From Pseudacidovorax sp. NFM-22 (GTDB lineage: Bacteria; Pseudomonadota; Gammaproteobacteria; Burkholderiales; Burkholderiaceae_C): a stretch of DNA of 64,000 bases. The stretch covers positions 1-64,000 of the forward strand of contig NZ_JACBFY010000002.1 of the NCBI RefSeq assembly GCF_021401245.1, read 5' to 3'. Under the pieces are notes generated by a model. The model did not search any database. It was not told the DNA's origin and saw only the letters and a program-made list of their open reading frames with translations. A program made the translations under genes and the position numbers. This document shows positions 45,186 through 64,000 of the stretch, piece by piece (positions within the stretch are counted from its first letter, which is position 1; each line of letters begins with the position of its first letter).

Positions 45186-45228
45186 GGGCGGGCTCCGTTG
45201 CGGGCGGCGTGTCGGGCGGCTGTGCGTC

Positions 45229-46074: not shown

Positions 46075-46091
46075 GGCGGCGGCGGAATTGC

Positions 46092-46568
46092 TCACTGCGC
46101 CACGTGGGCCAGCAGCGCCTCCAGGTCCAGCAGCATGACCATGCGGTCCTGCAGCGTGGCCAGGCCGGTGATGCACGACAGGTCGACCGCGGCCATATCG
46201 GGCCGGGGCTGCACCTGCTCGGCCGCGAGCGTGACCACCTCCGAGACGCCGTCCACCACCATGCCGATGACCTTGGCCCCGACGTTGACGATGATGACGG
46301 CGGTGAAGCGGTCGCAGTCGGCCTGCGGCAGGCCGAAGCGCAGCCGCAGGTCCACGATGGGCACGATGGCGCCGCGCAGATTGATCACGCCGCGCACCGC
46401 CGGATCGGCCTGCGGGATGCGGGTGACCGGCTCGTAGCTGCGGATCTCCTGCACCTTGAGGATGTCGATGCCGTAGTGCTCGGTGTCGAGCCGGAAGGTG
46501 AGGATGCCGGTCTGCGCCATCTGGGCGGCGAGTTCGGCGGCGGGAATGGCGGGTTCGGCAGCGCGCAT
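46092..46568 (-). CDS. cheW: Chemotaxis coupling protein CheW
   Basis: 158 residues. LTFRLDTEHYGIDILKVQEI, INLRGAIVPIVDLRLRFGLP and VIGMVVDGVSEVVTL are the standard CheW SH3-like subdomains. An Ala-rich N-terminal extension of about 22 residues precedes the fold. Links CheA to receptors. Eight bp after the cheA stop. Confidence 0.96.
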   Translation of the reverse strand: MRAAEPAIPAAELAAQMAQTGILTFRLDTEHYGIDILKVQEIRSYEPVTRIPQADPAVRGVINLRGAIVPIVDLRLRFGLPQADCDRFTAVIIVNVGAKVIGMVVDGVSEVVTLAAEQVQPRPDMAAVDLSCITGLATLQDRMVMLLDLEALLAHVAQ

Positions 46569-46576
46569 GAGGGGCC

Positions 46577-48562: not shown

Positions 48563-48584
48563 GACCGCGCTCCTGCAGTGCCGC

Positions 48585-48953
48585 TCACGCCAGCACCTTG
48601 CCGATCACCGCGATCAGCGTCTTCGGGTCGAAGGGCTTGACCATCCAGCCCGTCAGGCCCGCCGCGCGGCCGGCCGCCTTCATCTCGGCGCTGGACTCGG
48701 TGGTCAGCATCAGGATGGGCGTGCGCGCATGCTGCACCTGGCCACGCAGGCGACGGGTGAAGGTCAGGCCGTCCACATGCGGCATGTTCTGATCGGTGAC
48801 GATGGCGTCCACGTGCACGCCGCCGGCCAGCTTGTCCAGCGCCTCGGCCCCGTCGGCGGCCTCGACCACGGCGTAGCCGCCCATGCGCAGCGTCATCGCC
48901 ACCATCTGGCGGATCGAGGGGGAATCGTCCACGGTCATGACGGTCTTGTTCAT
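48585..48953 (-). CDS. cheY: Chemotaxis response regulator CheY
   Basis: 122 residues, single receiver. TVDDSPSIR (acidic pair), IVTDQNMPHVDG (acceptor Asp), MLTTESS (Thr), WMVKPFDP (Lys). Sequence is CheY-like of the type that sits between an MCP and cheA. Expected to bind the flagellar motor switch when phosphorylated. 22 bp before cheA. Confidence 0.95.
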   Translation of the reverse strand: MNKTVMTVDDSPSIRQMVAMTLRMGGYAVVEAADGAEALDKLAGGVHVDAIVTDQNMPHVDGLTFTRRLRGQVQHARTPILMLTTESSAEMKAAGRAAGLTGWMVKPFDPKTLIAVIGKVLA

Positions 48954-48973
48954 GGCTTGCTCCTCCCCGCGCG

Positions 48974-50680
48974 TCAGAAGGATTCCCAGCCCGCTTCGGC
49001 CCCGGCACCGGCCAGCACGGGCGCGGGGGCCGACAGGCGCCGCGGTGCCGGCCTGGCGCGCCCGGCCGGGCCGGTGGCGGTCACGGCGGCCGTCGCGCCG
49101 CGGGGCTTGCGCGCGGGCGGCGCCGCGGCCACCGTGGCATCGGCACCCAGGCGGAAGACCGCCACGCTGCGCACCAGGTGCTCGGCCTGCTCCTTGAGCA
49201 CGGCGGCGGCGGCCGACAGCTCCTCCACCACCGCGGCGTTCTGCTGCGTGGCCTGGTCCATCTGCACCACCGCCTGGCCCACCTGGGCCACGCCCAGGCT
49301 CTGCTCGCGGCTGGCGGCGCTGATCTCGCCGGCCACCTGGGCCACGCCGCGGATCGCGCCCACCACCTGCTCCATGGTGCTGCCGGCCTGGTCGGCCAGG
49401 TCCGAGCCGTGGGCCACGGTCTCCACGCTGGCGGTGATGAGCGACTTGATCTCCTTGGCGGCCTCGGCACTGCGCTGCGCGAGCGCCCGCACCTCGCTGG
49501 CCACCACCGCGAAGCCGCGGCCCTGCTCGCCCGCGCGCGCGGCCTCCACGGCGGCATTGAGCGCCAGGATGTTGGTCTGGAAGGCGATGCCGTCGATCAC
49601 GCCAATGATCTCGGAGATGCGGCCGGCGCTGTCGGCGATGCCGCGCATGGTCTCCACCACCTGCGCCACCACGGCGCCGCCCTCGGCCGCCACCTGCGAG
49701 GCGCGCGTGGCCAGCTCGCTGGCCTTCTGCGCATGCTCGGAGTTGTGGCGCACGGTGGTGTTGAGCTGCTCCATCGAGGCGGCCGTCTCCTCCAGCGCCG
49801 AGGCCTGCTGCTCGGTGCGGGCCGACAGGTCGCTGCTGCCCGCGGCGATCTCGCGGCTGGCCGAGGCCAGGCCGTCGGCATTGCGGCGCACCTCGCTGAC
49901 CACCGCAGCCAGCTTGCCGCGCATGGCCTCCAGGCTGTGCAGCAGGCGGGCCGTCTCGTCGCGGCCCTCGGCATGCACGCGCACCGTCAGGTCGCCCGCC
50001 GCCACCGATTCGGCCACGCCGGAGGCGCCGGCGATGGGCCGGGTGATCGAACGCGTGACCAGCACCGAGCACAACCCGCCCAGCAGCACCGCCGCCAGGC
50101 CGCCGACCAGGATCATCCATTCGCTGCTGCGCAGCGTGTCGATCGTGTGCTGGCGATGGCGGCTGCCGTCGGCCCGGATGTCCTCGCTCACGCGCTCCAG
50201 GGCGGCCAGGTAGGTGTCGGCATACGCCACCAGCGCCTGTTCCTGCTCGGCCGTCATGGCGCGGCCGGCCGACTGGGCGGCGAAGAGTTCCTCGCGCAGC
50301 CGGGTGTAGGCCGCGCGGTCGGCCACCACGCGGGCGATGTGCTGGCGGCCCTCGTCGTCGACGGCCGAGTCGGCGACGCTCTTGGCCATCTCGCCGATGC
50401 GCTGCGAGGTGGCCTGGGTCTCGCGCGAGAGGGCCTGCACATAGGCCCCGTCGCGGCTGTGCAGCAGGGCCAGCGACCGCACCATGTTCAGCCGGATGTC
50501 GGCCGCCCACTGCTGGGCCAGCACCTCGCGGTCGTGGATCACGTTCGCCTGGTAGTCCAGCGCCTCGCGCAGCATCCGCAGCCGCGAGACGCCCAGGGCC
50601 GCCACCAGGCCGGTGACGATCAGCACGAGGAGGAAGGCGGCCGCGAGCCGGCTGCCGGTCTTGAAGTTGTTCAGGCGCAT
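48974..50680 (-). CDS. Transmembrane methyl-accepting chemotaxis protein with C-terminal CheR-type pentapeptide
   Basis: 568 residues. TM1 ([19 protein letters not shown]), a four-helix-bundle periplasmic sensor to about residue 190, TM2 ([21 protein letters not shown]), HAMP, then the signalling domain with the hairpin tip [20 protein letters not shown] and [18 protein letters not shown]. An unstructured Ala/Pro tail ends GWESF, similar to the NWETF CheR/CheB docking pentapeptide of E. coli Tar and Tsr. Ligand unknown. Confidence 0.94.
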
Positions 50681-50695
50681 GAGGACGCTTTCGGG

Positions 50696-51109
50696 TCAGA
50701 AGAATTCATGGGTGCCCGCGCCGGGGGCGCCAGGCTTCGGGCAGGCGGTGCCATGCGCATCGCCCCAGGCGGCCGCGGGCGGCCAGGCCGGCGATCGCCG
50801 GGCCGCGTCGGCCGAGCCGGTGTCGGCGGCGGCATGGCGCAGGGCACCGGCCAGCTGCGACTGCCGGCGCTGGGCGGCCTGCAGCAGCTGGCCCAGCGTG
50901 TCTTCGGCCTGCAGGGCCACCATCACCTGCCGCAGGGCCGTGCGGACCGCGACGTCCGAATCGGCGTGCGCGCCGGCCACCTGCACGAAGCCGGCGCGCA
51001 GGTCGCCCATGGCCTGCGCCAGCATGGCGCCGGCCAGCGCCAGCTCCTGGGCGCCCGCCTCGAGTTGCGCTGCCAGGCTGCAGCTGTCGACGGGCAGGGG
51101 CGCGTTCAT
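50696..51109 (-). CDS. Unnamed chemotaxis-operon protein, CheZ-like candidate
   Basis: 137 residues, mostly helical to residue 90, then a Pro/Ala-rich tail ending THEFF. Not recognised as a standard family member. The helix QVMVALQAEDTLGQLLQ places Asp70 and Gln74 in the same DxxxQ spacing as the catalytic Asp/Gln of CheZ (DLTGQ). Full-length CheZ is about 210 residues, so this would be a reduced form. ATG overlaps the preceding gene by 4 bp; the transmembrane MCP gene follows 15 bp later. CheZ-like activity is inference. Confidence 0.6.
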   Translation of the reverse strand: MNAPLPVDSCSLAAQLEAGAQELALAGAMLAQAMGDLRAGFVQVAGAHADSDVAVRTALRQVMVALQAEDTLGQLLQAAQRRQSQLAGALRHAAADTGSADAARRSPAWPPAAAWGDAHGTACPKPGAPGAGTHEFF

Positions 51110-51594
51110 GCGGCGCCCCACAGGCCCAGCAGCCCCTCGGCGTAGCCGTCCACCTCGACCTTGAACACGGCCCGGCGCAGACGCGCGGTGGCGGGCGGCA
51201 GCAGGGCGGCGACGGCGGGCTCGCCGAAGGCGGTCTGCAGCAGGGTCAGCCGGCCGGCGTCGTCGCGCACGATCAGCCGTGCCCCCACGTTGAGCACCTC
51301 GGCGAAGTTCTCGCGCAGCGTGTCGTCCAGGGCGCCGGCGCGCACCCGGTCGTCGGCGGCGTCGGCCGGCACCAGCGAGAGCGCGGCCGCCAGGTGCGCG
51401 GCCAGCGGCAGGTCGGCCGCCAGCCAGGCCAGCGGCGTGCGGTCGCCGCCGTGGTAGCTACCGGCGGCCGCGAAACGGCAGCGGGTGGCGGCCGGCTGCA
51501 TCGACGCCTCCACGGCGCGCCGCAGCAGCAGGCCGAGCGAGCGCTCCACCTGGGCCGCCGTGGGCAGGGACAGCATCATGGCGGCCGCCGTCAT
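51106..51594 (-). CDS. CheX/CheC-like protein (candidate CheY phosphatase)
   Basis: 162 residues. The central sequence ALDDTLRENFAEVLNVGARLIV, with Glu99 and Asn102 in ExxN, resembles the active helix of CheX/CheC/FliY phosphatases (ELGN or EIGN type). The C-terminal strands (AVFKVEVDGYAEGLLGL) also fit that fold. Only one ExxN helix is seen, as in CheX. Overlaps by 4 bp both the receiver gene before it and the CheZ-like gene after it, so the three are made together. Family assignment is tentative. Confidence 0.6.
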   Translation of the reverse strand: MTAAAMMLSLPTAAQVERSLGLLLRRAVEASMQPAATRCRFAAAGSYHGGDRTPLAWLAADLPLAAHLAAALSLVPADAADDRVRAGALDDTLRENFAEVLNVGARLIVRDDAGRLTLLQTAFGEPAVAALLPPATARLRRAVFKVEVDGYAEGLLGLWGAA

Positions 51595-51953
51595 TCGAGC
51601 AGGTCCACCAGCGCCACGCGGAAGTCCTCGGCGCTGAAGGGCTTGCCGATGAGGAAGGCCGCCCCGGCATCGAAGGCCTGCTGCTGCATCTCGGCGCTGA
51701 CCTCGGTGGTGACGAAGCCGAAGGGCGTCGTCGACGCCTCGGCGCGCAGGGCCTGGAGCAGCTCGATGCCGGTCATCGCGGGCATGTTCCAGTCCGAGAT
51801 GATCAGTTCGGGCGACTCGGCATGGGCGGCCGCCAGCGCCTGCTGGCCGTCGGCGGCCTCGACGATGTGGTGGCCGCGGAAGCCGGCCTCGCGCAGCATG
51901 TGGGCGATGACCTGCCGCATGGCGCGGCTGTCGTCGGCGATCAGGATCTTCAT
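51591..51953 (-). CDS. CheY-like single-domain response regulator
   Basis: 120 residues. ADDSRAMRQ, IISDWNMPAMTG (acceptor Asp), FVTTEVS (Thr) and LIGKPFSAED (Lys) are all present. Differs from the CheY at 48585 and is likely a second CheY, perhaps a phosphate sink or target of the CheX-like protein. Located between the PAS-MCP gene and the CheX-like gene, coupled to the latter by ATGA. Confidence 0.92.
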   Translation of the reverse strand: MKILIADDSRAMRQVIAHMLREAGFRGHHIVEAADGQQALAAAHAESPELIISDWNMPAMTGIELLQALRAEASTTPFGFVTTEVSAEMQQQAFDAGAAFLIGKPFSAEDFRVALVDLLE

Positions 51954-51974
51954 GGCGACTCCTTGGATGAGGCC

Positions 51975-53654
51975 TCAGGCATGGGCCAGGCGGGAGGCCG
52001 GGGGCAGGTCGTCGGCGAAGGCGCCGGCGCCCTCCTCGCCGGCGTCGTCGAAGGCGCTGGCCTGGGCCGCGGGGGCCGTCCGGCCGCCCGCACCGGCGCC
52101 GCGGAACACGCTCACCGCCTGGCCCAGGTGCTGGGCCTTCTCCTCCAGCGCGGCAGAGGCGGCGGCCACCTCCTCCACCAGCGCGGCGTTCTGCTGCGTC
52201 ACCTGGTCGAGCTGGATGACGGTCTGGTTGATCTGCTGGATGCCGGCCGTCTGCTCGGCGCTGGCCGCGGCGATCTCGCCGATGAAGTCGGTGACGCGCC
52301 TGACGCTGTCGACCACCTCGCCCATGGTGCTGCCGGCCTCGCCCACCAGGCGCGTGCCGGCGTCCACCTTGGCCACGGCGTCGTCGATCAGCGCCTTGAT
52401 CTCGCGCGCGGCCTGGGCCGAGCGCTGCGCCAGCTGGCGCACCTCGGCCGCCACCACCGCGAAGCCGCGGCCCTGCTCGCCGGCCCGGGCGGCCTCCACC
52501 GCGGCGTTGAGGGCCAGGATGTTGGTCTGGAAGGCGATGCCGTCGATCACGTCGATGATCTCCACCACCCGCTTGGACGAGCCGTGGATCGAGGCCATGG
52601 TCTGCACCACCTGCGCCACCACGCCGCCGCCCCGGGCCGCCACCTGCGAGGCGGAGACCGCCAGCTCGTTGGCCTGGCGCGCGTTCTCGGCGTTCTGGCC
52701 CACGGTGCTGGTGAGCTCCTCCATCGACGCGGCCGCCTCCTCCAGCGCACTGGCCTGCTCCTCGGTGCGCGAGGACAGGTTCAGGTTGCCCTGCGCGATC
52801 TCGGTCGAGGCGGTGCTCACGCCCGCCACGCCGCTGCCCACGTCCGCGATCACGGCGACGAAGTTGGCGCTCATCTGGTTGAGGGCGCTGACCAGCGCCC
52901 GCGTCTCGTCGCCGCGGCGCAGCACGAAGCGGCGCGGATCGGCGCTGGCGATGGCGCGGGCGGTGCGCACCGCGGCATCCAGCGGGCCGAGCACGGTGCG
53001 CTCCAGCATCAGGCCCAGCACCGTCCAAGCCAGGGCCGAGGCGGCGGACAGGCCGGCGAGCAGGCCGGTCGCCGACCCGGCCACGCCGCTCCAGGCCAGC
53101 CACGCACCCACCGCGGCGCTGGCCACGGCCAGCGTGCCGGTGGCCCAGGCCATGCGCCGGCGCAGCGGCAGGCGGCGCAGTGCGGCCATGGGATCGGCCC
53201 AGACCGGGCCGACCGGCTCGCCCTGGCGCACGCGCAGCCGGCTGCCGCCCTTGCGCAGGCGCTCGTAGAGCTGCTCGGCCGCGCGCACATCCTCGGGCGA
53301 GGGCCTGTTGCGCACCGACATGTAGCCCTCGATGCGGCCATCGGCGCAGATGGGGCTGGCGTTGGCCCGCACCCAGTAGAAGTCGCCGTTCTTGCAGCGG
53401 TTCTTGACGATGCCGGTCCACGGCAGGCCCTGCGCCAGCGTGGCCCACATGTCGGCGAAGACCTCCGGCGGCATGTCGGGGTGGCGAATGATGTTGTGCG
53501 CCCGGCCCAGCAGCTCCGATTCGGCGAAGCCGCTGATGTCCACGAAGGTGCCGTTCACGTAGGTGATGCGGCCCTTGAGGTCGGTGCGCGAAACCATGAA
53601 GCCGTTGGCCGGCAACTGGCGCTCCTGGGTGGTGATGGGCAGGTTGATCCGCAT
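51975..53654 (-). CDS. Aer-type methyl-accepting chemotaxis protein with N-terminal PAS domain
   Basis: 559 residues from ATG 53654. PAS domain at residues 10-120 ([36 protein letters not shown], typical of Aer, which binds FAD), a membrane-anchoring pair ([21 protein letters not shown] and [18 protein letters not shown]), HAMP, and the conserved signalling tip [20 protein letters not shown]. Likely energy or redox taxis receptor. First gene of the chemotaxis operon, divergent from the second signalling operon. Confidence 0.94.
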
Positions 53655-53997
53655 CGCTGTTCCTTGGCTGTCCGGCGCTGCCCGGGAAGATCCGGACAGG
53701 TCGTGGAAACAGATTGGAGCTAACAATACGTGACAAATCGTTTCTTCTCTGTGTCTTTTGCCGACTGGAAAAGGCAGGCTGCCTTTTCTTGATTTGCGTC
53801 AATTCCACGTCCCAAATGGGCTCGCAGCATGGGAAGAACGCCCATCGCCGCGACCGGTGTGCGCCCGCGGAGCCCCTGCGCCGCGGTGGGATGTTCAGAT
53901 TCAGGACAGAACGGCTTGTTACCTTTTGCCTGACCCTGTGTCACCTGCCGGTCACGCACAGCGGCACAACCACGAGACAAGCCGGACACCTTTCTCC
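53655..53997. other. 343-bp divergent intergenic region between the two signalling operons
   Basis: Noticeably lower GC than its surroundings (53700-53830). It holds the palindrome at 53768-53788 and must contain promoters for both the chemotaxis operon and the kinase-HD-GYP operon. No convincing sigma-28 site (TAAA, GCCGATAA type) was found on either strand. No small ORF is supported. Confidence 0.7.
53768..53788. promoter_or_regulatory. 21-bp near-perfect palindrome between divergent signalling operons
   Basis: GAAAAGGCAG-G-CTGCCTTTTC is a perfect 10+1+10 inverted repeat, followed by TTGATTTGCG. Transcribed as RNA it is a strong hairpin with a short T-run on either strand; as DNA it is a good operator candidate. 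Position, 114 bp from one start and 210 bp from the other, suits either role. Confidence 0.55.
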
Positions 53998-55461
53998 ATG
54001 CCTTCCAACCCTTCCCCGACCTTTCACGTCCTCGTCGTCGGCGCCGACGGGGCCGCGCGCGCCGCCCTGTGCGCCTGGCTCGGGCGCACCGGCCACCGCG
54101 TGCGCCCCGTAGCCGGCGTGGGCGAGGCCGTCGCCTGGCTGGGCTCGGGCGTTCCCACGGACGTGCTGCTGTGGCTGCCGGGCCCGGGCGAGTGGGAGCC
54201 CGAACGGGCCTGTGCCCGCCTGCGTGCCGGGGACCCGTGGCTGCCCATCGTGTCGCTGCTGGAGGCGCCGGACGAGGCGCGCGCCATCGAGGCCTTCGCG
54301 GCCGGCATGGACGACTGCCTGCATCTCGGGCTGAGCGACGCCCTGCTGGAGGCCCGGCTGGCGCGCCAGGCGCAGCGCTCGGCCCTGCTGGCCGACTGGC
54401 GGCGCCAGCTGCAGCGCCAGCGCGGCATCCAGGACAACATCGCCGACGCCGTGGTCACCGTGGACGCGCAGGCGATGGTGGTCGACGCCAACCGCGCCGC
54501 GCTGCGCTACTTCGGCGCGGCCGGCGCGCGCAGCCTGGCCGGCCAGCCGCTGGAGGCCGTCATCGGCGCGGCGCCCGGCCAGCTCGCCACCGGCGAGCGC
54601 CTGTGGCTGCGCACGGCCGACGGCGACGGCTTCTGGGCCCAGGCCAGCGCCAGCCGCTGGTGCGAGGCCGGCGCCGTGCGCACCACCTGGGTCCTGCGCG
54701 ACCTGACCGAGGCGCTGCGCAACGAGCGCATGCGCGACGAATTCCTGGCCAGCGTCAGCCACGAGCTGCGCACGCCGCTGACCTCCATCCTCGGCGCCGT
54801 CGGCCTGCTGGCCTCGGGCGTGGCCGGCCGGCTGCCGCCGACCGCACAGCCCCTGGTGGCCGCCGCGCAGCGCAACGGCGAGCGCCTGGGCAAGCTGATC
54901 GACGACGTGCTGGACTTGGCCAAGCTCGAAGGCGACCGCATGACCCTGCATTGCCAGTCGCAGGCGCTGGCCCCGCTGGCCGGCGAGGCCGTGAGCGCCG
55001 CGCAGGCCTATGCGGCGCGTGCCGGCGTGCAGCTGCGGCTGCGCTGCCCGGCCACCACGCCGGTTACCGGCCGCGGCGCCAGCGTGGATGCCGACCGCCT
55101 GCTGCAGGTGCTGGCCAACCTGATCTCCAACGCCATCAAGCATTCGGCGCCCGGCCAGACGGTGCTCATCGAGCTCAGCGACACCGGCGACGGCCAGCGC
55201 ATCGCCGTCACCGACCAGGGCCGGGGCGTGCCGGCGGCGTTCCGCTCGCACCTGTTCGAGAAGTTCGCCCAGGCCGAGGGCGGCGACCAGCGCGGGCCGG
55301 GCGGCACCGGCCTGGGCCTGCACCTGGCGCGGCTGCTGGTGCAGCGCATGGGCGGGCGCATCGGCTACGCGCCCGGCGCCGGCGAGGTCGGCTCCACCTT
55401 CGACGTCTGGTTCCCGGCCGAACCGGTCCCGCAGCCGGTCCGCGCGAGGGCGATGCCATGA
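53998..55461 (+). CDS. Histidine kinase with N-terminal pseudo-receiver and PAS domain
   Basis: 487 residues, no membrane helices. Residues 8-120 have the receiver pattern but the acceptor position reads DVLLWLPGPG (no Asp) and the Lys strand reads LHLGLS, so it cannot be phosphorylated normally. A PAS domain (about 140-240: IADAVVTVDAQAMVVDANRA) is followed by HisKA with His255 (SVSHELRTPL) and the ATPase boxes NLISNAIKHS, DQGRGVP and GTGLGLHLARLL. Next genes are a receiver and an Hpt, so the kinase probably starts a phosphorelay. Overlaps the next gene by 4 bp. Confidence 0.92.
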   Translation: MPSNPSPTFHVLVVGADGAARAALCAWLGRTGHRVRPVAGVGEAVAWLGSGVPTDVLLWLPGPGEWEPERACARLRAGDPWLPIVSLLEAPDEARAIEAFAAGMDDCLHLGLSDALLEARLARQAQRSALLADWRRQLQRQRGIQDNIADAVVTVDAQAMVVDANRAALRYFGAAGARSLAGQPLEAVIGAAPGQLATGERLWLRTADGDGFWAQASASRWCEAGAVRTTWVLRDLTEALRNERMRDEFLASVSHELRTPLTSILGAVGLLASGVAGRLPPTAQPLVAAAQRNGERLGKLIDDVLDLAKLEGDRMTLHCQSQALAPLAGEAVSAAQAYAARAGVQLRLRCPATTPVTGRGASVDADRLLQVLANLISNAIKHSAPGQTVLIELSDTGDGQRIAVTDQGRGVPAAFRSHLFEKFAQAEGGDQRGPGGTGLGLHLARLLVQRMGGRIGYAPGAGEVGSTFDVWFPAEPVPQPVRARAMP

Positions 55462-55937
55462 GCATTCACCCGGCTGTTCCGAAGAGTGCCTGCACCGCAG
55501 GCGAAGCCGACGGCGTTCGGATCGACGCCCCCCTCGACGGCGACGACGCGCTGCGGCGCGTGATGTGCGTGGAGGACGACGACGACATCCGCTACATCCT
55601 CGACTTCAGCCTCAGTCAGATCGGCGGCTACGAGGTCTGCGCGGTGGGCAGCGGCGCCGAGGCGCTGCAGGCGGCCCCCCGCTTCCGGCCCGACCTGGTG
55701 CTGCTGGACGTCATGATGCCGCAGCTGTCCGGCCCGCAGACCCTGCAGCAGCTGCGGCAGCTGCCCGGCATGGAAGGCGTGCCGGTGGTCTTCCTCACGG
55801 CCAAGGCGATGCCCGAACAGCTGGAGGAGCTGCTGCGCCACGGCGCCACCGGCGTGATCGTCAAGCCCTTCGACCCCGTGCGCCTGCCGCAGGACATCCG
55901 CATGTACTGGGAGCACGGCCGTGGGCCCCGGGGCTGA
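55458..55937 (+). CDS. Single-domain response regulator
   Basis: 159 residues. A 33-residue N-terminal extension precedes the receiver: CVEDDDDIR (acidic pocket), LVLLDVMMPQLSG with acceptor Asp84, FLTAKAM (Thr), VIVKPFDP (Lys). No output domain. With the Hpt gene overlapping its 3' end by 17 bp it looks like the intermediate of a kinase-receiver-Hpt relay. ATGA overlap with the kinase gene. Confidence 0.92.
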   Translation: MSIHPAVPKSACTAGEADGVRIDAPLDGDDALRRVMCVEDDDDIRYILDFSLSQIGGYEVCAVGSGAEALQAAPRFRPDLVLLDVMMPQLSGPQTLQQLRQLPGMEGVPVVFLTAKAMPEQLEELLRHGATGVIVKPFDPVRLPQDIRMYWEHGRGPRG

Positions 55938-56259
55938 CCGCGGCGGGCCCGCCTACGCGGCGCTGCGCCGCCGCTTCCTCGACGGCCTGCCCCAGCGCCG
56001 GGCGGCCATCCTGGAGGCTGCCGATGCCCAGGGCCGCCAGCAGGCGCTGCACCGCCTGGCCGGTGCCGCCGGCAGCTACGGCTTCGCCGCGCTGGGCGAG
56101 CTGGCGCGCCATGCCGAAGGGCAGACCGACCCGGCCGGCATCCGCCAGGCCCTCGATGCACTGGAGGCCGCCCTCGACGGCCTGATCGCCCCCGCCCGCG
56201 ACGGAGACACGCCACCATGGAAATCAGCAGCCACCACGCCGGACACGACATCGTCGTGA
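55921..56259 (+). CDS. Hpt-domain phosphotransfer protein
   Basis: 112 residues from a GTG that lies inside the end of the receiver gene. His44 in ALHRLAGAAGSYGF fits the Hpt pattern HxLxGxAxxxG, although the usual Lys in LKG is Ala. Four helices are predicted in residues 8-90; the last 20 residues are low complexity. It could pass phosphate from the receiver at 55458 to another receiver such as the one at 59967. Confidence 0.8.
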   Translation: MGPGADRGGPAYAALRRRFLDGLPQRRAAILEAADAQGRQQALHRLAGAAGSYGFAALGELARHAEGQTDPAGIRQALDALEAALDGLIAPARDGDTPPWKSAATTPDTTSS

Positions 56260-56558
56260 TCGCCCTGCGCGAGGCCAACCTCGACGCCAGCAACGTGCGC
56301 GAGTTCAAGGAGACCGTGCAGGCCCTGGTCGGCCCCACGGCGACGCGGGTGGTGTTCGACCTGCAGGGCGTGAAGTTCATCGACAGCTCGGGCCTGGGCG
56401 CGCTGATCTCCTGCCTGCGGCAGCTCAACGCCCGGCGCGGCGACCTGCGGCTGTGCAACCTCACGCCCACGGTGCAGGCGCTGCTGGCGCTGATGCGCAT
56501 GAACCGCGTGTTCCAGATCTTCCCGGACCGGCAGGATGCCATCGCCTCCTTCGGCTGA
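56217..56558 (+). CDS. STAS-domain anti-sigma factor antagonist
   Basis: 113 residues. HDIVVIALREANLDASNV, FDLQGVKFIDSSGLGALIS (Asp56, phosphorylatable Ser57), LCNLTPTVQALLALMRMNRVF, as in RsbV/SpoIIAA. It should be phosphorylated by an RsbW-type kinase and dephosphorylated by a SpoIIE-type phosphatase; the next gene encodes both activities in one chain. Starts within the end of the Hpt gene (43-bp overlap). Confidence 0.94.
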   Translation: MEISSHHAGHDIVVIALREANLDASNVREFKETVQALVGPTATRVVFDLQGVKFIDSSGLGALISCLRQLNARRGDLRLCNLTPTVQALLALMRMNRVFQIFPDRQDAIASFG

Positions 56559-59500
56559 GGCGGGTCCGGACCCAGCGCCGGACGCGCGCGCCGAGGCCGG
56601 CCCCGACGCCGCCCTGGAACGCGCCCTGCGCCGGCGCGAGCAGCAGCTGCGCTGGGTGGGCCTGCTGGTGGCCGTCGCGGTGCTGCTGACGATGGCCGCC
56701 CGGGTGGCACAGGGCTGGAACAACCTGCACGACGAAGCGCAGGAACACGCCCGGCTGCATGCCACGGCGCTCGCCAGCCTGGTGGAGGCCCGGCTGGACC
56801 GGGCGGAAGCCGCCACGCAGGCCCTGGCGGCCGCCTGGCCGGCCGGCACGGCCGACACACCCGCCTTGCCGGAGGCCGCCGGCGAAGGCCTGCGGCCTCC
56901 GTGGGACCACGAGCTGCTGGCCGTGCTCGCCCTCGACGCGCACGGCGCGCGCCTGGCGCAGGACGGCGCCCCCCCGCTGCGGCTGCCGCTGGCCAGCCTG
57001 GGCCTGCCGGCCACGGCGTCGGCCTGCGACCCGTGCGTCGGCCGGCGGCTGCCCGCGGCGGCCCTGCCGCCCCTGCTCGCGCAGCGGGCACCGGCCGGCG
57101 TCGTGCCGGTGCTGCGCGTGCTGCCGGGCCAGCGCGGCTGGGCCGTGGCCCTGCTGCAGGCCGACAGCCTGGACCGGCTGACCGATGCGCTGGCCCAGGA
57201 GCGCGGCGGCTGGGCCCTGCTGGCCGGCCCCGCCGGCGAAGTGCTGTCGGCCAGCGCCAACGCGCCCTGGCCGGCCGGCACCCGGGCCGGCGCCGTGGAC
57301 CCGGGCGACCCGGCCGCCGAGCAATGGCTGCCGCAGCGGGCCCTGAAGGTGCGGGTCGTCCAGCCGCGCCAGCCGCTGCTGCAGCACCTGCTGCGCCAGA
57401 TCCGCCCGGGCGTCGGCCTGACCCTGTTCACGCTGGCCATCGTGCTGGTGGCGCTGCGTGCGCTGCGCCACAGCATCGCGAGCCAGCACAGGGCACGCGC
57501 CACCCTGGCCCGCCTGCATGCGCAGGGCGAGCAGCGCGCCCAGCGCTGGCGCCGCGCGCTGGCGGCGTCGGGCGACGCGCTGTGGGAATGGCGGCTGCCC
57601 GACGGCCGGGTCGACCTGAGCGAGCGCTGGGCCGCCATGCGCGGCGAGCCGCCGGCCGAATGCCGCTACGACAGCGCCGCCTGGCTGGCTCTGCTGCATC
57701 CCGAGGACCGGCACACGCTGGCGGACCGGCTCGCCCGCCACCTGCGCCGGGAGCTCGCCAGCCTGCATTGCGAGGCCCGCGTGCGCTGCGCCGACGGCCG
57801 CTGGAAGTGGATGCTGCTGCGCGGCGTGGCCCTGCCCGTGACGCGCGCCGGCCAGGAGGCCATGCATGTGCTGGGCTTCGTCACCGACATCGCCGACCAG
57901 CGCGCCAACGAGGCGGCCCTGAGCACCGCCCAGGCCCGGCACCAGGCCGTGCTCGACAGCGCACTCGACGCCGTCGTCACCGCCGACGCCCGCGGCAAGG
58001 TGGTCGACTTCAACCCCGCTGCCGAACGCATGTTCGGCCTGCCGCGCGAGCAGGCGCTGCACCGCCCCATCCACCGCCTGCTGGCCCCCGGCGAGGCCCG
58101 GCGCGCCATGCGCCAGCGCGCGATGCACGCCCTTCGCGGCGCCGGCGTGGGCATGCATGGGGGCGGCCGCATCGACGTGATGGGGCTGCGCGCCAACGGC
58201 CAGCACTTCCCGGTGGAGGCCACGGTGGTGGCGGTGCGTGCCGGCGCGCAGACGCTGTTCACCGCCACCATGCGCGACATCTCGGAGCAGCGCCGCGTGG
58301 AGCGCGCCCTGCGCGACAGCGAGGTGCGCGCCCGCGCCACCTTCGAGCAGGCGGCCGTGGGCATCTTCCTGCTGGACGAGCGGCAGCAGCAGCTGGTGCG
58401 CGTCAACCAGACGCTGTGCCGCCTGCTGGGCCGCGATGCCGCCGCGCTGCTGGGCCTGCCGCTGCAGGGCCTGCTGCATCCGCTGGACGCGCCCGCCGTG
58501 ATGCAGGGCACCGCCCAGCTGTTCGACGGCGCCAGCACCAGCCTGCGGCTGGAGGCCCGGCTGGTGCGTGCCTCCGGCCGGCCGCTGTGGGTGCGGCTGA
58601 CCGCCTCGCTCGCGCGCGACGACCGGGGCCGCGTGCTCTACCTCATCGGCATCGTCGAGGACATCGAGGAGCAGCGCCAGCACCGCGAGGACCTGCGCGC
58701 CGCGCGCCAGCTGGAGGTGATGATCAGCGCCCGCATCCAGGCCTCGCTGCTGGTGGCCGCGCCCGCCGTGGACCTGCCGGGCCTGTGGCTGAGCAGCTTC
58801 AACCATGCTTCGCAGGACATCGACGGCGACTTCTTCGAGGTGATGCGCCCGGGCCCGCGCTGCGTGGACCTGATCGCCGGCGACGTGATGGGCAAGGGCG
58901 TCAATGCCGCGCTGCTGGGCGCGGCCGTGAAGATGCAGTTCAGCCGCTCGCTGGTGGAGCTGATGATGCAGCCCGCCGCCCGCGACGCCACACCCGAGCC
59001 GGCCGACATCCTCAACGCCGTGCACGCGGCCATGACACCGCACCTGCAGGCGCTGGAGACCTTCGTCACCCTGGCCTACGTGCGCATCGACCTGGCGCGC
59101 GGCCTGCTCACCTGGTGCGGCTGCGGCCACGAGGAGGTGATGCACATCGGCCCGGGTGGCGCCGTGGCGCTGCTGCGCAACCAGCATCCGCCGCTGGGCG
59201 TGCTGGCCGACACCCGCTTCACGCAGGAAAGCCGGCCCGTGGGCCCGGGCGACGCCCTGCTGCTGCATTCCGACGGCCTGTGCGACGCCCGCCTGGGCGA
59301 CGGCGAGCGCGTGGGCGTGCAGCAGGTGCATGCCGCCTTCCGCCGGCTGGCCCGGCACCATGCCACGCCGGCCGCCATGCTGCACCGCATGCGCCAGCAG
59401 CTGCTGGCCGGCACCATGCTGACCGACGACGTGACGCTGGCCACCGTGCGGGTGTTCGACCCGCAGCAGCCCGTGCAGCGCCTCGAACTGCCCGCCGAGC

Positions 59501-59970
59501 CGGCGGCCATCGGCGCCCTGCGTGCCCTGGTGGACCGCGGCCTGGCCGAGGCCGGCCAGACTTCGCCGGCCAGCGGCCTGTTCACCGTGGCGGTGGTGGA
59601 AGCCTTCACCAACATCGTGCGCCACACGCGCGGGCGGCTGCCGCAGGCGCCGGTGGAGGCCCTGGTGCAACGGCAGCCCGACGCGCTGGAGGTGTCGCTG
59701 ATCCACATCGGCGAGCCCTACGTGCCGCCCGAGGACGAGCTGCCCACCAACTTCGACGACTACCCCGAGGGCGGCTTCGGCCTGACCATCATCCACAAGG
59801 CCTGCGACCGGGTCGACTACCTGCACCACGACGGCGTGAGCACCGTGCGGCTCACCCGCTGGCTGGACGAGGCCGCTCCTGGCGGGAGTTTGCAGTCCCG
59901 TCACGATCTGGCCGCCCCCTCGGCCGTCCAATCCCAGGACCGTCCCCAACCCCACTCCCAGCCCGCATGA
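56536..59970 (+). CDS. Membrane PAS-SpoIIE phosphatase with C-terminal anti-sigma-type kinase domain
   Basis: 1144 residues. TM1 about residues 38-60, periplasmic sensor domain about 60-290, TM2 ([19 protein letters not shown], about 292-312). Three PAS domains follow (about 335-455, 470-590, 595-715). The PP2C/SpoIIE phosphatase has [25 protein letters not shown] and HSDGLCDAR. The C-terminal HATPase_c_2 domain has [12 protein letters not shown] (N box) and GGFGLTII (G2), but the G1 motif reads IHIGEPY in place of DxG. It should both phosphorylate and dephosphorylate a STAS protein, probably that at 56217. Overlaps it by 23 bp. Confidence 0.93.
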
Positions 59971-61505
59971 ACATCGCCCTCCTGGAAGACGACCCCGATC
60001 AGCGGGACCTGGCCACCCTGTGGCTCAGCCACGGCGGCCATCAGGTGACCAGCTTCGGCAGCACCGGCGAGCTGATCCGCGAGCTGGGCTCGCGCCGCTA
60101 CGACCTGCTGGTGCTGGACTGGACGCTGCCCGACGGCACCGGCGGCGACGTGCTGACCTGGCTGCGCAACCGCCCGGGCGTGCAGCCGCCGGCCATCGTG
60201 CTGACCTCGCGCGACGAGGAGGCGCATGTGGTCGAGGGCCTGAACAGCGGCGCCGACGACTACCTCGTCAAGCCCGCGCGCCCGGCGGAGCTGCTGGCCC
60301 GCATCAGCGCGCTGAGCCGCCGCGCCCGCACGCGCGGCCCCCAGGTGCTGGAGCTGAACGGCTACCGCGTGGACCTGGTGCAGCACCGCATCGCCGTCGA
60401 CGGCACGCCGGTCGACCTGACGCAGAAGGAATTCGACCTGGCCGTCTACCTCTTCCAGAACCCGGGCGTGCTGCTGTCGCGCGAACACCTGCTCAACCGC
60501 GTCTGGGGCAAGACGGCGGACGTGACCACCCGCACGGTGGACACCCACATCAGCCGCCTGCGCCGCAAGCTGCGGCTGGACGGCCAGGGGCCGCTGCGCC
60601 TCACGCCCGTGTACGGCCAGGGCTACCGGCTGGACGCGATCGAACTGCACGGTGCGCAGGCGGACGCCGGCGCGGGCACGGAAGCCGAAACGCAGATGGA
60701 CGCGGTCGCCCAACTGGCGGCCGCGCTGCCGAGCGCCTGTGCAGGCCCAGGCCCGGCCCCGGGCGCCGACGAAGGCGCGGGGGCGGACACCGTGGCCGCC
60801 GCGGGCATCGACTGCTGCCCGGGTGTGCTCGCCCAGGGCGGCCCCGCCGAGCCGCGCGAAGTGCTGGACCACCTGGCCCGCGCCGCGCGCTTCCGCGATG
60901 GCGAGACGGCCGCGCACATGGTGCGGGTGGGCTTCCTGGCCTGGGCCCTGGCCCTGGCGGCCGGCTGCAGCCCCGAGGCCGCACTGCTGCTGCGGCAGGC
61001 CGCGCCCATGCACGACGTCGGCAAGATCGGCGTGGCCGATGCGCTGCTCAAGCACCCGGGGCACTTCTCGTCGGACCAGCACCGGCAGATGGAGGCCCAC
61101 ACCATCATGGGCGCCGAGATCCTCGGCGGCTCCGACCTGCCGCTGCTGCGCCTGGCCGCCGAGATCGCCCTGACCCACCACGAGCGCTGGGACGGCGGCG
61201 GCTACCCGCGCGGCCTGCGGGGCGACGCCATTCCGCTGCCGGGGCGCATCACGGCCCTGGTCGACTTCTTCGATGCGATGGTGAGCGAGCGCCGCTACCG
61301 CGCGCGCATGAAGCCCGAAGAGGTGCTGCGCCTGCTGCACGCGCAGAGTGGTGCGGCCTTCGACCCCACGCTGGTGTCGATCTTCATCCGCCATGGCGAG
61401 CGCATGGCACGGGTGTGCGAGCAGGTGATGGCGCGCGGCCTGGGCTTCGACGCGCTGACCGACCCGCAGGCGCTGGACTTCGCGGCCCTGCCGGCCGGCG
61501 CCTGA
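59967..61505 (+). CDS. Receiver - OmpR-type winged helix - HD-GYP fusion protein
   Basis: 512 residues with three recognisable domains. Receiver (1-120): [20 protein letters not shown] (Asp51), [10 protein letters not shown] (Lys). Trans_reg_C winged helix (about 128-222): [43 protein letters not shown]. Then an Ala/Gly-rich linker and an HD-GYP phosphodiesterase (about 300-490) with His349-Asp350 ([18 protein letters not shown]), [13 protein letters not shown] (GYP 412-414) and DFFDAM. It should bind DNA and degrade cyclic-di-GMP under control of phosphorylation. Overlaps the upstream gene by 4 bp (ATGA). Confidence 0.92.
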
Positions 61506-61638
61506 AGACCCGGACGGCCGGCATCCCGGACCGGCCTTGCCGCCCGGGCAGGTCCGTCCCGTGGCACGGGTGCGGGCCGGGCGATGACGGACGGCATGCG
61601 CTGCGCGTGTGGGCCAAGGGCGCAAAAGAGGCATCGGC

Positions 61639-61656
61639 TGACAGCAGCGGCTGTCA
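61639..61656. terminator. Possible hairpin before the stressosome module
   Basis: TGACAG and CTGTCA form a 6-bp stem around CAGCGG, 133 bp after the HD-GYP gene and 72 bp before the rsbR-like gene. A pyrimidine stretch (CCCTTTCC) follows. Weak evidence for a terminator or an operator separating the two units. Confidence 0.3.
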
Positions 61657-61727
61657 CCCTTTCCTACACTTTTTGGCGCTCCCGAATCCCCATCCCAACA
61701 AGGGAGCATCCCAACGGAGGGCCCCCC

Positions 61728-62576
61728 ATGAACCCGGAAACCGCGGCCCTTGTCCGTGCCTTGAAAGACGATGCCACCGCCGTGGTCGAGGAATGGATGC
61801 GCGAGCTCCAGGCCACCACGCAGGGCGGCCTGCATGCCAGCGCCAAGGCCGAGGCCACGGCCGTCGCCGACGGCCTGCGCAGCGCCCTCGAAGCCGGGGG
61901 CGATGCGCAGTCGCTCCAGGGCCCCGCCTGGCAGGCGCTGCGGCGCACGCTGGAGCAGCTGTCGGCCAGCCGCGCCGCCAAGGGCGATTCGGCCGGCGCC
62001 ACCAGCGTCTTCGTGCTGGGGCTCAAGAAGCCCCTCTTCGGCCGCCTTCAGCAGGTCTTCGCGCAGGACCCGGCCGCCATGGGCAGCGCCCTGTGGACGC
62101 TCTCCGCCCTGATCGACCGCCTGGCGCAGCACACGGCCGACACCTTCCAGCAGTCGCGCGAGGACGTCATCCGCCGCCAGCAGGAGGACCTGCTCGAACT
62201 CTCCACCCCCGTGGTCAAGCTGTGGGACGGCGTGCTGGCCGTGCCCATGATCGGCACGCTGGACAGCAACCGCACCCAGGTCGTCATGGAGACGCTGCTG
62301 CAGACGGTGGTGGACACCGGCTCGGCCCTGGCCATCATCGACATCACGGGCGTGCCCACGGTGGACACGCTGGTGGCCCGCCACCTGCTCAAGACCGTCA
62401 CGGCCATCCGCCTGATGGGCGCCGACTGCATCATCAGCGGCATCCGCCCGCAGATCGCGCAGACCATCGTGCACCTGGGCATCGACCTGCAGGGCATCGT
62501 CACCAAGGCCACGCTGGCCGACGCGCTGGCGCAGGCCCTCAAGACCAACGGCTGGCGCATCAGCCGCGAGGCCTGA
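61728..62576 (+). CDS. rsbR: RsbR-like stressosome scaffold protein (STAS domain)
   Basis: 282 residues. The N-terminal half (1-150) is a helical sensor domain without strong similarity to the globin-like RsbRA domain by eye. The C-terminal STAS domain starts [24 protein letters not shown] and includes [15 protein letters not shown], where RsbR proteins carry the phosphorylatable Thr. With RsbS it would form the stressosome core that captures RsbT. GGAGG ribosome binding site before the ATG at 61728. Confidence 0.9.
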
Positions 62577-62581
62577 ACCCC

Positions 62582-62962
62582 ATGGACCGCATCCCGATCC
62601 TGCGGATGGGCCAGACCCTGCTGGTCACCATCCAGATCGACCTGCAGGACCAGACCGCCCTGGCGCTGCAGGAAGACCTGGCCAACCGCATCGCGGCCAC
62701 CGGCGCCTCCGGCGTGCTGATCGACATCTCGGCGCTGGAGGTGGTCGATTCCTTCATCGGCCGCATGCTCAGCACCATCTCGGGCACGGCCCGCATCCTC
62801 TCGGCCACCGCGGTGGTGGTGGGCATGCAGCCGGCCGTGGCCATCACCCTCGTCGAGCTGGGCCTGTCGCTCGACGGCGTGCGCACCGCCCTGGACGTGG
62901 AGCGCGGCATGGCCCTGCTCGAGCGGCTGCGCGCCCAGCAGGGAGCCCGCCTTGGCGCCTGA
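62582..62962 (+). CDS. rsbS: Stressosome STAS protein RsbS
   Basis: 126 residues, single STAS domain. [20 protein letters not shown] is the typical RsbS start, and [18 protein letters not shown] has Ser57 at the position phosphorylated by RsbT in B. subtilis (Ser59). [15 protein letters not shown] is also conserved. Starts 5 bp after the rsbR-like stop and overlaps rsbT by 11 bp. Confidence 0.95.
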
Positions 62963-63356
62963 ACCCACCGGCACCCTGCCGCTGGCCAGCGAGCAGCACA
63001 TCGTCGCCAGCCGGCAGACGGTGCGCGCCCTGTGCCAGGAACTGCGCTTCTCGCTGGTGGAGCAGACCAAGATGGTCACGGCCGCCAGCGAGCTGTCGCG
63101 CAACACGCTGATCCACGGCGGCGGCGGCCGCATGCACTGGGCCGTGCTGCAGGAAGGCGTGCGCCGCGGCCTGCAGCTGCGCTTCGAGGACGAAGGCCCC
63201 GGCATCGCCAACATCGACCTCGCCATGTCCGACGGCTACACCTCCGGCGCCGGCATGGGCCTGGGCCTGCCGGGCAGCAAGCGGCTGGTGAACGAATTCG
63301 ACATCCGGTCCACGCCCGGCCAGGGCACCTGCGTGAGCATCGTGAAGTGGAAGTGA
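62952..63356 (+). CDS. rsbT: Stressosome switch kinase RsbT
   Basis: 134 residues from TTG at 62952, inside the end of rsbS. HATPase_c domain with N box [14 protein letters not shown]1 [10 protein letters not shown] and G2 [13 protein letters not shown]. RsbT phosphorylates RsbS/RsbR and, when released, activates a partner. The rare TTG start is chosen because the following residues ([14 protein letters not shown]) match the family start; expression is likely coupled to rsbS. Overlaps the next gene by 4 bp. Confidence 0.93.
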
Positions 63357-64000
63357 TCCGCGGCTGGACGCACCGCGCGTTCCCCATCGAGGACCTGAGC
63401 TTCGTCGGCGAGGCCCGGCGCCATGTGGGGCGCCTGGCGGCCGAGCGCGGCTGGCCCGAGCACGACTCCGCCCGCGCCGCCCTGGTGGCCACCGAGCTGG
63501 GCACCAACCTGGCCAAGCATGCGCAGGCCGGCCAGCTGCTGGTGGCCGCGCGCGACGCGCTGGGCGACATCGAGCTGATCGCCGTGGACCGCGGCCCGGG
63601 CATGCCCGACCTGGCGCGCTCGATGCGCGACGGCTTCTCCACCACCGCCACGGCCGGCACCGGGCTGGGCGCCATCGCGCGGCAGAGCGAGGCGTTCGAC
63701 CTCCATTCGCTGCCCGGCATGGGCACCGTCTGCCTGGCCCGCGTGCGGCCACGCACGGGCACGGCCGTGGCCGCCCCGGCCCGGACGGATGCCTTCGACT
63801 GGGGCGCCGTGTGCGTGCCGGTGCGCGGCGAGACCGCCTGCGGCGACGCCTGGATGCTGGCCTTCGACGGCCATCGCGCCGCGGCCCTGCTGGCCGACGG
63901 GCTGGGCCACGGGCCCGACGCGCAGGTCGCCGCCCAGGCGGCGCTGGAGGGTTTTGCCAGCCGCCCCTTCGACGACGGCGCGGCGACGATGCAGTCCGTG
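63353..64000 (+). CDS. ATPase-SpoIIE phosphatase fusion (RsbX-like), 3' truncated by window edge
   Basis: Open from GTG 63353 to the last base (216 codons shown). Residues 1-130 form an RsbT/RsbW-like ATPase: ALVATELGTNLAKHA (N box), VDRGPGMPDLA (G1), GTGLGAIARQSEAFD (G2). From about 145 a PP2C/SpoIIE domain begins (GDAWMLAFD, LLADGLGHGPDAQVAAQAAL) and runs off the window. Such fusions close many non-Firmicute stressosome operons and reset RsbR/S by dephosphorylation. GTG overlaps the rsbT stop by 4 bp (GTGA). Confidence 0.9.
   Translation, partial: MIRGWTHRAFPIEDLSFVGEARRHVGRLAAERGWPEHDSARAALVATELGTNLAKHAQAGQLLVAARDALGDIELIAVDRGPGMPDLARSMRDGFSTTATAGTGLGAIARQSEAFDLHSLPGMGTVCLARVRPRTGTAVAAPARTDAFDWGAVCVPVRGETACGDAWMLAFDGHRAAALLADGLGHGPDAQVAAQAALEGFASRPFDDGAATMQSV

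What the first reader, a model, noticed from the sequence alone, without database searches (positions are those of the whole stretch)
53998..64000. Phosphorelay, partner-switch and cyclic-di-GMP genes assembled as one signalling unit beside a chemotaxis operon
In order: kinase with pseudo-receiver, receiver, Hpt, STAS, PAS-SpoIIE/kinase, receiver-wHTH-HD-GYP, then RsbR-S-T and an ATPase-SpoIIE fusion. The first six genes overlap each other by 4-43 bp. Two complete partner-switch cycles sit together but no sigma factor or free anti-sigma factor is in view. I infer that the switch ends in the HD-GYP/wHTH protein, so that stress or redox cues tune cyclic-di-GMP and hence motility run by the adjoining che operon.
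Basis: partly seen in the sequence, partly recalled or inferred. Interest (0 to 1): 0.8.

Follow-up and report, generated by a model that had tools for sequence, protein, structure and literature searches.

The report
Two signalling modules beside chemotaxis genes
A Pseudacidovorax-like bacterium carries, side by side, a stress-sensing gene set of a known kind and a separate switch that seems to end in an unusual protein built both to bind DNA and to destroy the messenger cyclic-di-GMP, next to a chemotaxis operon.

Summary
The gene list is right, but it is two modules, not one. (1) 53998-61505, six overlapping genes: kinase with dead receiver, receiver, Hpt, STAS, membrane PAS-PP2C-(RsbW-like) protein, receiver-wHTH-HD-GYP. 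(2) 61728 to 67274 (contig read on to 80 kb): RsbR-RsbS-RsbT-(HATPase-PP2C)-histidine kinase-hybrid kinase, a stressosome module of a published kind with phosphorelay output. No sigma, anti-sigma or GGDEF gene follows. Module 2 occurs without module 1 in 20 of 20 loci examined outside the genus and in 3 of 9 RsbR-bearing congeners, with its own promoter-like element. Module 1 is in 6 of 15 congeners, always with the same PAS-MCP gene diverging from it; the window's CheA is beside it in five, and in the sixth a 63% CheA lies on another contig; the other nine have no such CheA. That supports a chemotaxis link, though perhaps from one gain in one clade. The first switch is not clearly 'complete': the kinase-like domain of the PP2C protein lacks the G1-box Asp in 120 of 120 listed relatives. 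The receiver-wHTH-HD-GYP fusion was seen only in this clade; elsewhere receiver-wHTH stands alone near the PP2C protein (5 of 10 loci), with EAL and PilZ genes in 3. New variant of known kinds; mechanism plausible, untested.

The parts
53998..55461 (+). A: histidine kinase, pseudo-receiver - PAS - HisKA - HATPase
   Evidence: Pfam; receiver Asp lost in all six congeners with A, present in relatives L072 and L079
55458..55937 (+). B: single-domain receiver, phospho-acceptor Asp intact
55921..56259 (+). C: Hpt protein, His conserved
56217..56558 (+). D: single STAS protein, DSSGLG site
56536..59970 (+). E: two hydrophobic (TM-like) segments, PAS repeats, SpoIIE/PP2C, RsbW-like HATPase without G1-box Asp
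59967..61505 (+). F: receiver - PhoB-type wHTH - HD-GYP, motifs present
61638..61670 (+). promoter-like element CTGACA-N21-TAnAnT upstream of RsbR
   Evidence: 9 of 9 RsbR-bearing congeners; only such site in the 80 kb
61728..62576 (+). G: RsbR (RsbRD_N - STAS)
62582..62962 (+). H: RsbS (STAS)
62952..63356 (+). I: RsbT (HATPase, G1 box intact by inspection)
63353..64000 (+). J: HATPase - PP2C fusion (RsbX-like), continues to 64372
   Evidence: followed outside the window by K 64369-65298 (HisKA kinase) and L 65280-67274 (REC-PAS-HisKA-HATPase-REC)
43500..53726 (-). divergent che operon (left end not determined, scan cut at 43500): PAS-MCP, CheY, two genes without Pfam match, 4HB-MCP, CheY, CheA, CheW region, CheR, CheD, CheB
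   Evidence: CheW region read only

Best explanation
Two adjacent, separately transcribed modules. Module 1 (A-F): kinase A, receiver B and Hpt C form a phosphorelay that ends on the receiver of F; membrane PP2C protein E sets the phosphorylation of the STAS protein D; D in one state binds a module-1 protein (most likely F or A) and so tunes F, which hydrolyses c-di-GMP and acts on promoters, setting motility together with the divergent che operon. Module 2 (G-L): an RsbRST stressosome with an RsbX-like phosphatase whose released RsbT acts on kinase K and hybrid kinase L. SHOWN: gene content, order, domains, kept and lost catalytic residues, co-inheritance of module 1 with the che genes in this clade, independence of module 2 elsewhere. 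INFERRED: every protein contact and phosphate path, that F is an active phosphodiesterase and DNA binder, the effect on motility, the RsbR promoter, any cross-talk between the modules.
For: Module 2 alone: in 20 of 20 RsbR loci examined outside the genus R-S-T is followed by a PP2C gene and a histidine kinase and no D, E, HD-GYP or Hpt homologue lies in the stretch fetched; three congeners have it without A-F; promoter-like element 9 of 9. Module 1 with che: E in 6 of 15 congeners, the same MCP gene diverging from A in all six, CheA beside it in five. c-di-GMP: HD-GYP motifs intact; at ten E-homologue loci outside the genus REC-wHTH in 5, EAL in 3, PilZ in the same 3, GGDEF in 1. K as target of RsbT: in L095-L099 the kinase after RSTX carries an RsbT-like N-terminal domain (Pfam of two of the five).
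Against: The two modules touch in 6 of 6 congeners that have module 1, which hints at coupling. Outside the genus E is thinly sampled: 8 of 198 family genomes have a match at E <= 1e-50, 4 of 398 other genomes of the order at E <= 1e-90 with the alignment. STAS D lies near E in only 3 of 10 outside loci and REC-wHTH in 5 of 10. No direct evidence that D binds F or A. The che co-occurrence may be one event: the six form one clade in the RsbR tree, and in G203 CheA is 63% identical and on another contig.
Confidence: 0.5

Rival explanations
1. One integrated unit: the RsbRST stressosome feeds module 1. In the strongest form RsbT or the HATPase half of J is the missing kinase of D (or RsbT activates phosphatase E as it does RsbU), and F is the common output.
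For: Adjacent in 6 of 6 congeners with module 1; E's kinase-like domain lacks the G1-box Asp, whereas RsbT and J keep it (by inspection); K and L lack an output domain, so Hpt C and F could serve them.
Against: Module 2 stands without module 1 in 20 of 20 outside loci and 3 congeners; own promoter-like element.
Confidence: 0.2
2. D acts in trans on an anti-sigma or sigma factor (FlgM type, as HsbA does) and F answers only to the phosphorelay.
For: HsbA binds FlgM in P. aeruginosa (PMC5085249, passages); D passes the cut-off of the anti-sigma antagonist superfamily TIGR00377.
Against: No such gene nearby; D overlaps Hpt and E genes, in line with a local partner.
Confidence: 0.13
3. The neighbourhood is inherited by descent only; the three blocks (che, A-F, G-L) work independently.
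For: The six genomes form one clade in the RsbR tree; one acquisition would give the same pattern; in G203 the che genes next to A are partly different.
Against: Order kept in G209 and G210 at 77-82% protein identity (F, E, CheA); no CheA match in the nine congeners without module 1.
Confidence: 0.17

Closest known systems
RsbRSTX stressosome with two-component output (Vibrio vulnificus RSTX-D1-D2; RSTX plus HisKA/REC phosphorelays; PMC9237108 and PMC10014275, passages read)
   Same: R-S-T-X order, no sigB, histidine kinase genes directly downstream
   Different: RsbR has RsbRD_N rather than the globin sensor; the RsbX-like phosphatase is fused to an RsbT-like HATPase where that paper describes a single-domain PP2C; no GGDEF, EAL or HD output in K or L
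HptB-HsbR-HsbA-HsbD of Pseudomonas aeruginosa (PMC5085249, passages read)
   Same: Hpt, phosphatase plus kinase-like protein, antagonist (STAS-type) protein, c-di-GMP enzyme, beside chemotaxis genes, controls motility
   Different: E has no receiver but TM-like and PAS segments; the enzyme is HD-GYP (degrading) fused to receiver and wHTH, not a cyclase; no FlgM at the locus
SiaABCD of P. aeruginosa (PMC7647112, passages read)
   Same: PP2C phosphatase sets the phosphorylation of a small antagonist-like protein that acts on a c-di-GMP enzyme instead of a sigma factor
   Different: separate kinase SiaB; threonine site on SiaC; cyclase SiaD; no phosphorelay
B. subtilis RsbRST-UVW-SigB (as described in PMC9237108 passages)
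   Same: RsbRST, PP2C and antagonist protein types
   Different: no sigma factor, no free anti-sigma factor

Membership tests
RsbRSTX stressosome module | RsbR with N-terminal sensor-type domain and STAS | tested here: met
   RsbRD_N 57.7 bits, STAS 48.7 bits
RsbRSTX stressosome module | RsbS and RsbT directly downstream | tested here: met
   same order in 20 of 20 loci outside the genus
RsbRSTX stressosome module | RsbX-type PP2C next to RsbT | tested here: met
   PP2C part matches SpoIIE 3zt9 (2.7e-11) and RsbX 3w40 (3.8e-5); fused to HATPase, unfused in L100. The Pfam SpoIIE score of J, 24.4, is just under the cut-off of 25
RsbRSTX stressosome module | RsbR:RsbS supramolecular complex, RsbT release | not testable with these tools
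   needs purified proteins
Stressosome with two-component output | kinase/receiver genes after RSTX, no sigma factor | tested here: met
   K and L; no sigma seen to 80 kb
HptB-HsbR-HsbA pathway | phosphatase/kinase protein with receiver (HsbR) | tested here: not met
   E has TM-like and PAS segments, no receiver
HptB-HsbR-HsbA pathway | diguanylate cyclase (HsbD) linked | tested here: not met
   F is HD-GYP; no GGDEF domain in A-L
HptB-HsbR-HsbA pathway | antagonist protein with phosphorylatable Ser | tested here: inconclusive
   DS-(S/A)-GLG in all ten D homologues compared; which Ser is phosphorylated is recalled, phosphorylation not tested
SiaABCD | separate switch kinase SiaB | tested here: not met
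   no separate serine-kinase gene in A-F
Sigma-controlling partner switch (RsbUVW-SigB) | adjacent sigma and anti-sigma genes | tested here: not met
Active RsbW-type kinase (domain of E) | G1-box Asp (its role is recalled) | tested here: not met
   His in E; 0 of 120 listed relatives have Asp; RsbW 6m36 has it. N-box Glu and Asn kept in 120 of 120

The most novel reading that the evidence does not exclude
F is a single response regulator with two outputs, DNA binding and c-di-GMP hydrolysis, controlled at once by a His-Asp phosphorelay and by a STAS partner switch whose kinase has been handed over to the neighbouring stressosome (RsbT or J): a stressosome that ends in a DNA-binding phosphodiesterase and steers the cell's only canonical chemotaxis kinase system.
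Probability: 0.13. Interest if true: 0.75.

Novelty: new variant of a known kind. Interest (0 to 1): 0.42.

Why it matters
Partner switches that act on c-di-GMP enzymes rather than sigma factors are known in few cases (HsbA-HsbD and SiaC-SiaD in the papers seen). Here the likely target is a degrading enzyme fused to a DNA-binding response regulator, and a stressosome without a sigma factor lies next door, so the open question of what Gram-negative stressosomes act on becomes testable in one short stretch of DNA.

Tried and rejected
'Sigma factor just beyond 64000': rejected by reading on to 80 kb. 'E is a complete kinase and phosphatase like RsbW plus RsbU': weakened. 'J is a novel fusion': rejected; 649 clusters at E <= 1e-20 among 8000 scored candidates, all 120 listed with the HATPase_c_2 domain and 112 of them also with SpoIIE, and 19 of 20 loci have the fusion. 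'The RsbR promoter element is family-wide': rejected, 0 of 21 upstream regions outside the genus (20 genomes, one locus taken twice). Plasmid search: one hit, Vitreoscilla filiformis, 41%. Promoter/terminator scan of the F-G gap found nothing. E orthologues named Variovorax exist (54-60% identity), but their neighbourhoods could not be fetched. My first gene caller picked antisense frames and was replaced. On re-checking I found that the sixth CheA (G203) is weaker than I had taken it to be and lowered the main confidence from 0.55 to 0.5 and two rivals slightly.

Literature: searches. In their listings (titles and starts of abstracts only) I saw no receiver-wHTH-HD-GYP fusion and no Pseudacidovorax stressosome; passages of five papers were seen; in a sixth, PMC8256260, the searched words were absent.
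Full report
WHAT IS THERE. The window is contig C14:1-64000 of a 6.4-Mb genome. The nearest named relatives of F and J are labelled Pseudacidovorax (93% and 83%). Another genome of the same database genus, G201, has a contig of 871,256 bases like that behind a protein named Xenophilus arseniciresistens, so the genus may be broader than one name. I letter them A to J. The contig goes on: J ends at 64372 and is followed by K (HisKA-HATPase kinase, 64369-65298) and L (REC-PAS-HisKA-HATPase-REC, 65280-67274). Then come lower-GC genes (0.52 against 0.73-0.75 around), one a DUF6402 protein and one without Pfam match, and a cluster on the other strand: TctC, SnoaL-like, glyoxalase, SDR, CoA ligase, two acyl-CoA dehydrogenases, an FCD-domain protein. 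No sigma factor, anti-sigma factor or GGDEF gene was seen up to 80 kb.

TWO MODULES, NOT ONE. I searched 200 family genomes with F, E and RsbR. F has a match in 17 of 200 (E <= 1e-60), full length in two, the window's genome and G177. E has a match in 10 of 200 (E <= 1e-50), two of them in the genus. RsbR has a match in 31 of 200 (E <= 1e-20), 24 at 50% identity or more. In the order, 5 of 399 genomes, own included, match an E alignment at E <= 1e-90. Outside the genus 28 genomes have RsbR; I fetched 20 of these loci (18 kb each, one 10 kb). In all 20, RsbR-RsbS-RsbT is followed by a PP2C gene and a histidine kinase; the PP2C is fused to a HATPase in 19; in 14 the kinase pair has the K-L form. 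No homologue of D, E, Hpt C or the HD-GYP part was labelled in any of the 20 stretches; three (L089, L097, L098) hold a receiver-wHTH regulator of weak, generic score (55-59 and 24-30 bits, against 111-124 for the F-like ones).

WITHIN THE GENUS. Of 15 genomes, F is in 6 (one a fragment at a contig edge), E in the same 6 and RsbR in 9. In the six, RsbR follows F directly. In three (G071, G204, G201) the G-L module stands without A-F. Upstream of RsbR all nine have CTGACA-N21-TAnAnT. These are seven really different upstream sequences: G071 equals G204, and G177 equals G206 but for its length. Shuffled sequences gave 3 hits in 18,000, but the pattern was drawn from these same related sequences, so that control flatters it. 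It is the only such site in the 80 kb and absent from 21 upstream regions outside the genus. The sigma-70 scan found no consensus promoter or terminator in the gap. So RsbR probably has its own start of transcription; this is inference.

THE CHE LINK. The operon diverging from A encodes a PAS-MCP, a 4HB-MCP, two CheY, CheA, CheR, CheD and CheB. CheA has a match at E <= 1e-100 in 6 of 15 congeners, the same six as E. Five of these are 82-97% identical or the window itself and lie in the same arrangement, che-A-B-C-D-E-F-G-H-I-J-K-L (own, G177, G206, G209, G210). The sixth, G203, is weaker: the MCP that diverges from A is the orthologue there too, but the next gene is another MCP, and the CheA-CheR-CheD-CheB run (CheA 63%) is on another contig; G203 also has further CheA-type frames at 45-46%. 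Taken as independent genomes, identical sets of 6 in 15 have a chance of 1 in 5005, but the six form one clade in a one-gene RsbR tree, so this may be one event. An H-kinase_dim search found in all 15 a match inside a long frame (1693-2404 aa), which I take for a ChpA/PilL-type kinase (recalled). Leaving that aside, the window's CheA is the only one that search finds in its genome. Flagellin is in 12 of 15, six of them without a CheA match.

HOW MODULE 1 MAY WORK. A's receiver has lost its phospho-acceptor Asp in all six congeners; homologues in L072 and L079 keep it, so this is decay of a true receiver. B keeps its Asp, C its His, F its receiver, wHTH and HD-GYP motifs. That allows a relay A to B to C to F. 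E has two hydrophobic segments (40-58 and 292-310), PAS repeats, a PP2C with all metal Asp residues, and an RsbW-like domain. Against RsbW 6m36 the G1-box Asp is His in E. Of the 120 listed relatives (144 found), none has Asp there (His 58, Tyr 41, Thr 9, others 12; recounted), whereas N-box Glu and Asn and the six PP2C Asp residues are kept in 120 of 120. In one search, 18 loci gave 15 proteins, and none has the Asp, so the loss is old and wide and not special to this clade. RsbT and J keep it by inspection. I had no sequence of HsbR to compare. E is therefore built as a phosphatase but may be no kinase; who phosphorylates D is open, and RsbT or J are the nearest candidates. That is inference.

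OUTPUT. The REC-wHTH-HD-GYP protein F appears as five clusters, 76-93% identical, among the 120 rows listed of 3125 hits (8000 candidates scored). The score then falls from 866 to 239 bits, and most further rows cover 34-44% of F; two (P0102, P0120) cover 86-92% at 33% identity with PAS in place of wHTH. Other architectures listed: REC-LuxR-HTH-HD-GYP, REC-wHTH-GGDEF, REC-wHTH-Hpt. At ten E-homologue loci outside the genus (L071-L078, L101, L102) a stand-alone REC-wHTH like F's lies in the stretch in 5 (L071-L074, L101), STAS D in 3 (L071, L072, L102), EAL and PilZ in 3 (L071, L072, L101), GGDEF in 1 (L074, two genes) and none of these in 4 (L075-L078; in L077 E lies at the contig end). In the genome of L075 a kinase-REC-STAS set with a REC-wHTH lies on another replicon (L079). 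L072 has REC-PAS-kinase, REC, Hpt, STAS, an epimerase, E, a dCache kinase, REC, EAL, GAF, PilZ and REC-wHTH. So some relatives pair the same switch with c-di-GMP proteins of another class, which supports a c-di-GMP output for F; about half do not show it.

MODULE 2. [quoted passage not shown] In V. vulnificus the loss of RSTX or D1 lowers motility and fleQ expression (PMC10014275, abstract and passages). In L095-L099 the kinase after RSTX bears an RsbT-like domain (Pfam for L095 and L097), which suggests the kinase as the partner of RsbT. In L100 two RsbT-like genes and a free PP2C stand in place of RsbT and J, beside MCP and CheA genes, with a PAS kinase, a FAD-binding protein and a GGDEF-EAL gene downstream.

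VERDICT. Observation confirmed; interpretation partly supported. Module 2 is a member of a known kind. Module 1 works like HptB-HsbR-HsbA-HsbD and SiaABCD but fails defining features of both and is a variant with a rare fused output. Interest moderate.

Noticed in passing
window 46577-48562 and congeners: Six congeners with flagellin have no CheA match (flagellin 12 of 15, CheA 6 of 15 at E <= 1e-100; H-kinase_dim only in a long ChpA/PilL-like frame there): flagella apparently without a standard chemotaxis kinase.
   Followed up: partly
window 50699-51576 (minus strand): Two genes inside the che operon (141 and 156 aa) have no Pfam match; homologues stand in the same place in G209 and G206.
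   Followed up: partly
L009:8051-9783 (window scale 68051-69783): Lower-GC pair after the module: a DUF6402 protein and an unknown one; G177 has genes of similar size there, and a ParE-like gene at L068:718-1176.
   Followed up: partly
L095:11815-13080, L097:4810-6567 (also L096, L098, L099): Histidine kinases with an N-terminal RsbT-like HATPase_c_2 domain directly after RsbRSTX: a natural fusion of switch kinase and histidine kinase.
   Followed up: partly
L100:2461-16513: RsbRST with a second RsbT-like gene and unfused RsbX beside an MCP-CheA cluster, a PAS kinase and a GGDEF-EAL gene: stressosome, chemotaxis and c-di-GMP genes together in another genus.
   Followed up: partly
P0011 and P0095: REC-wHTH fused to GGDEF and REC-wHTH fused to Hpt are in the protein collection: PhoB-type regulators with other second outputs.
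   Followed up: no
L157 and L185-L188 (G203): In G203 the che genes next to A differ: the orthologous MCP diverges from A, but other MCP genes follow and CheA-type genes lie on three other contigs.
   Followed up: partly
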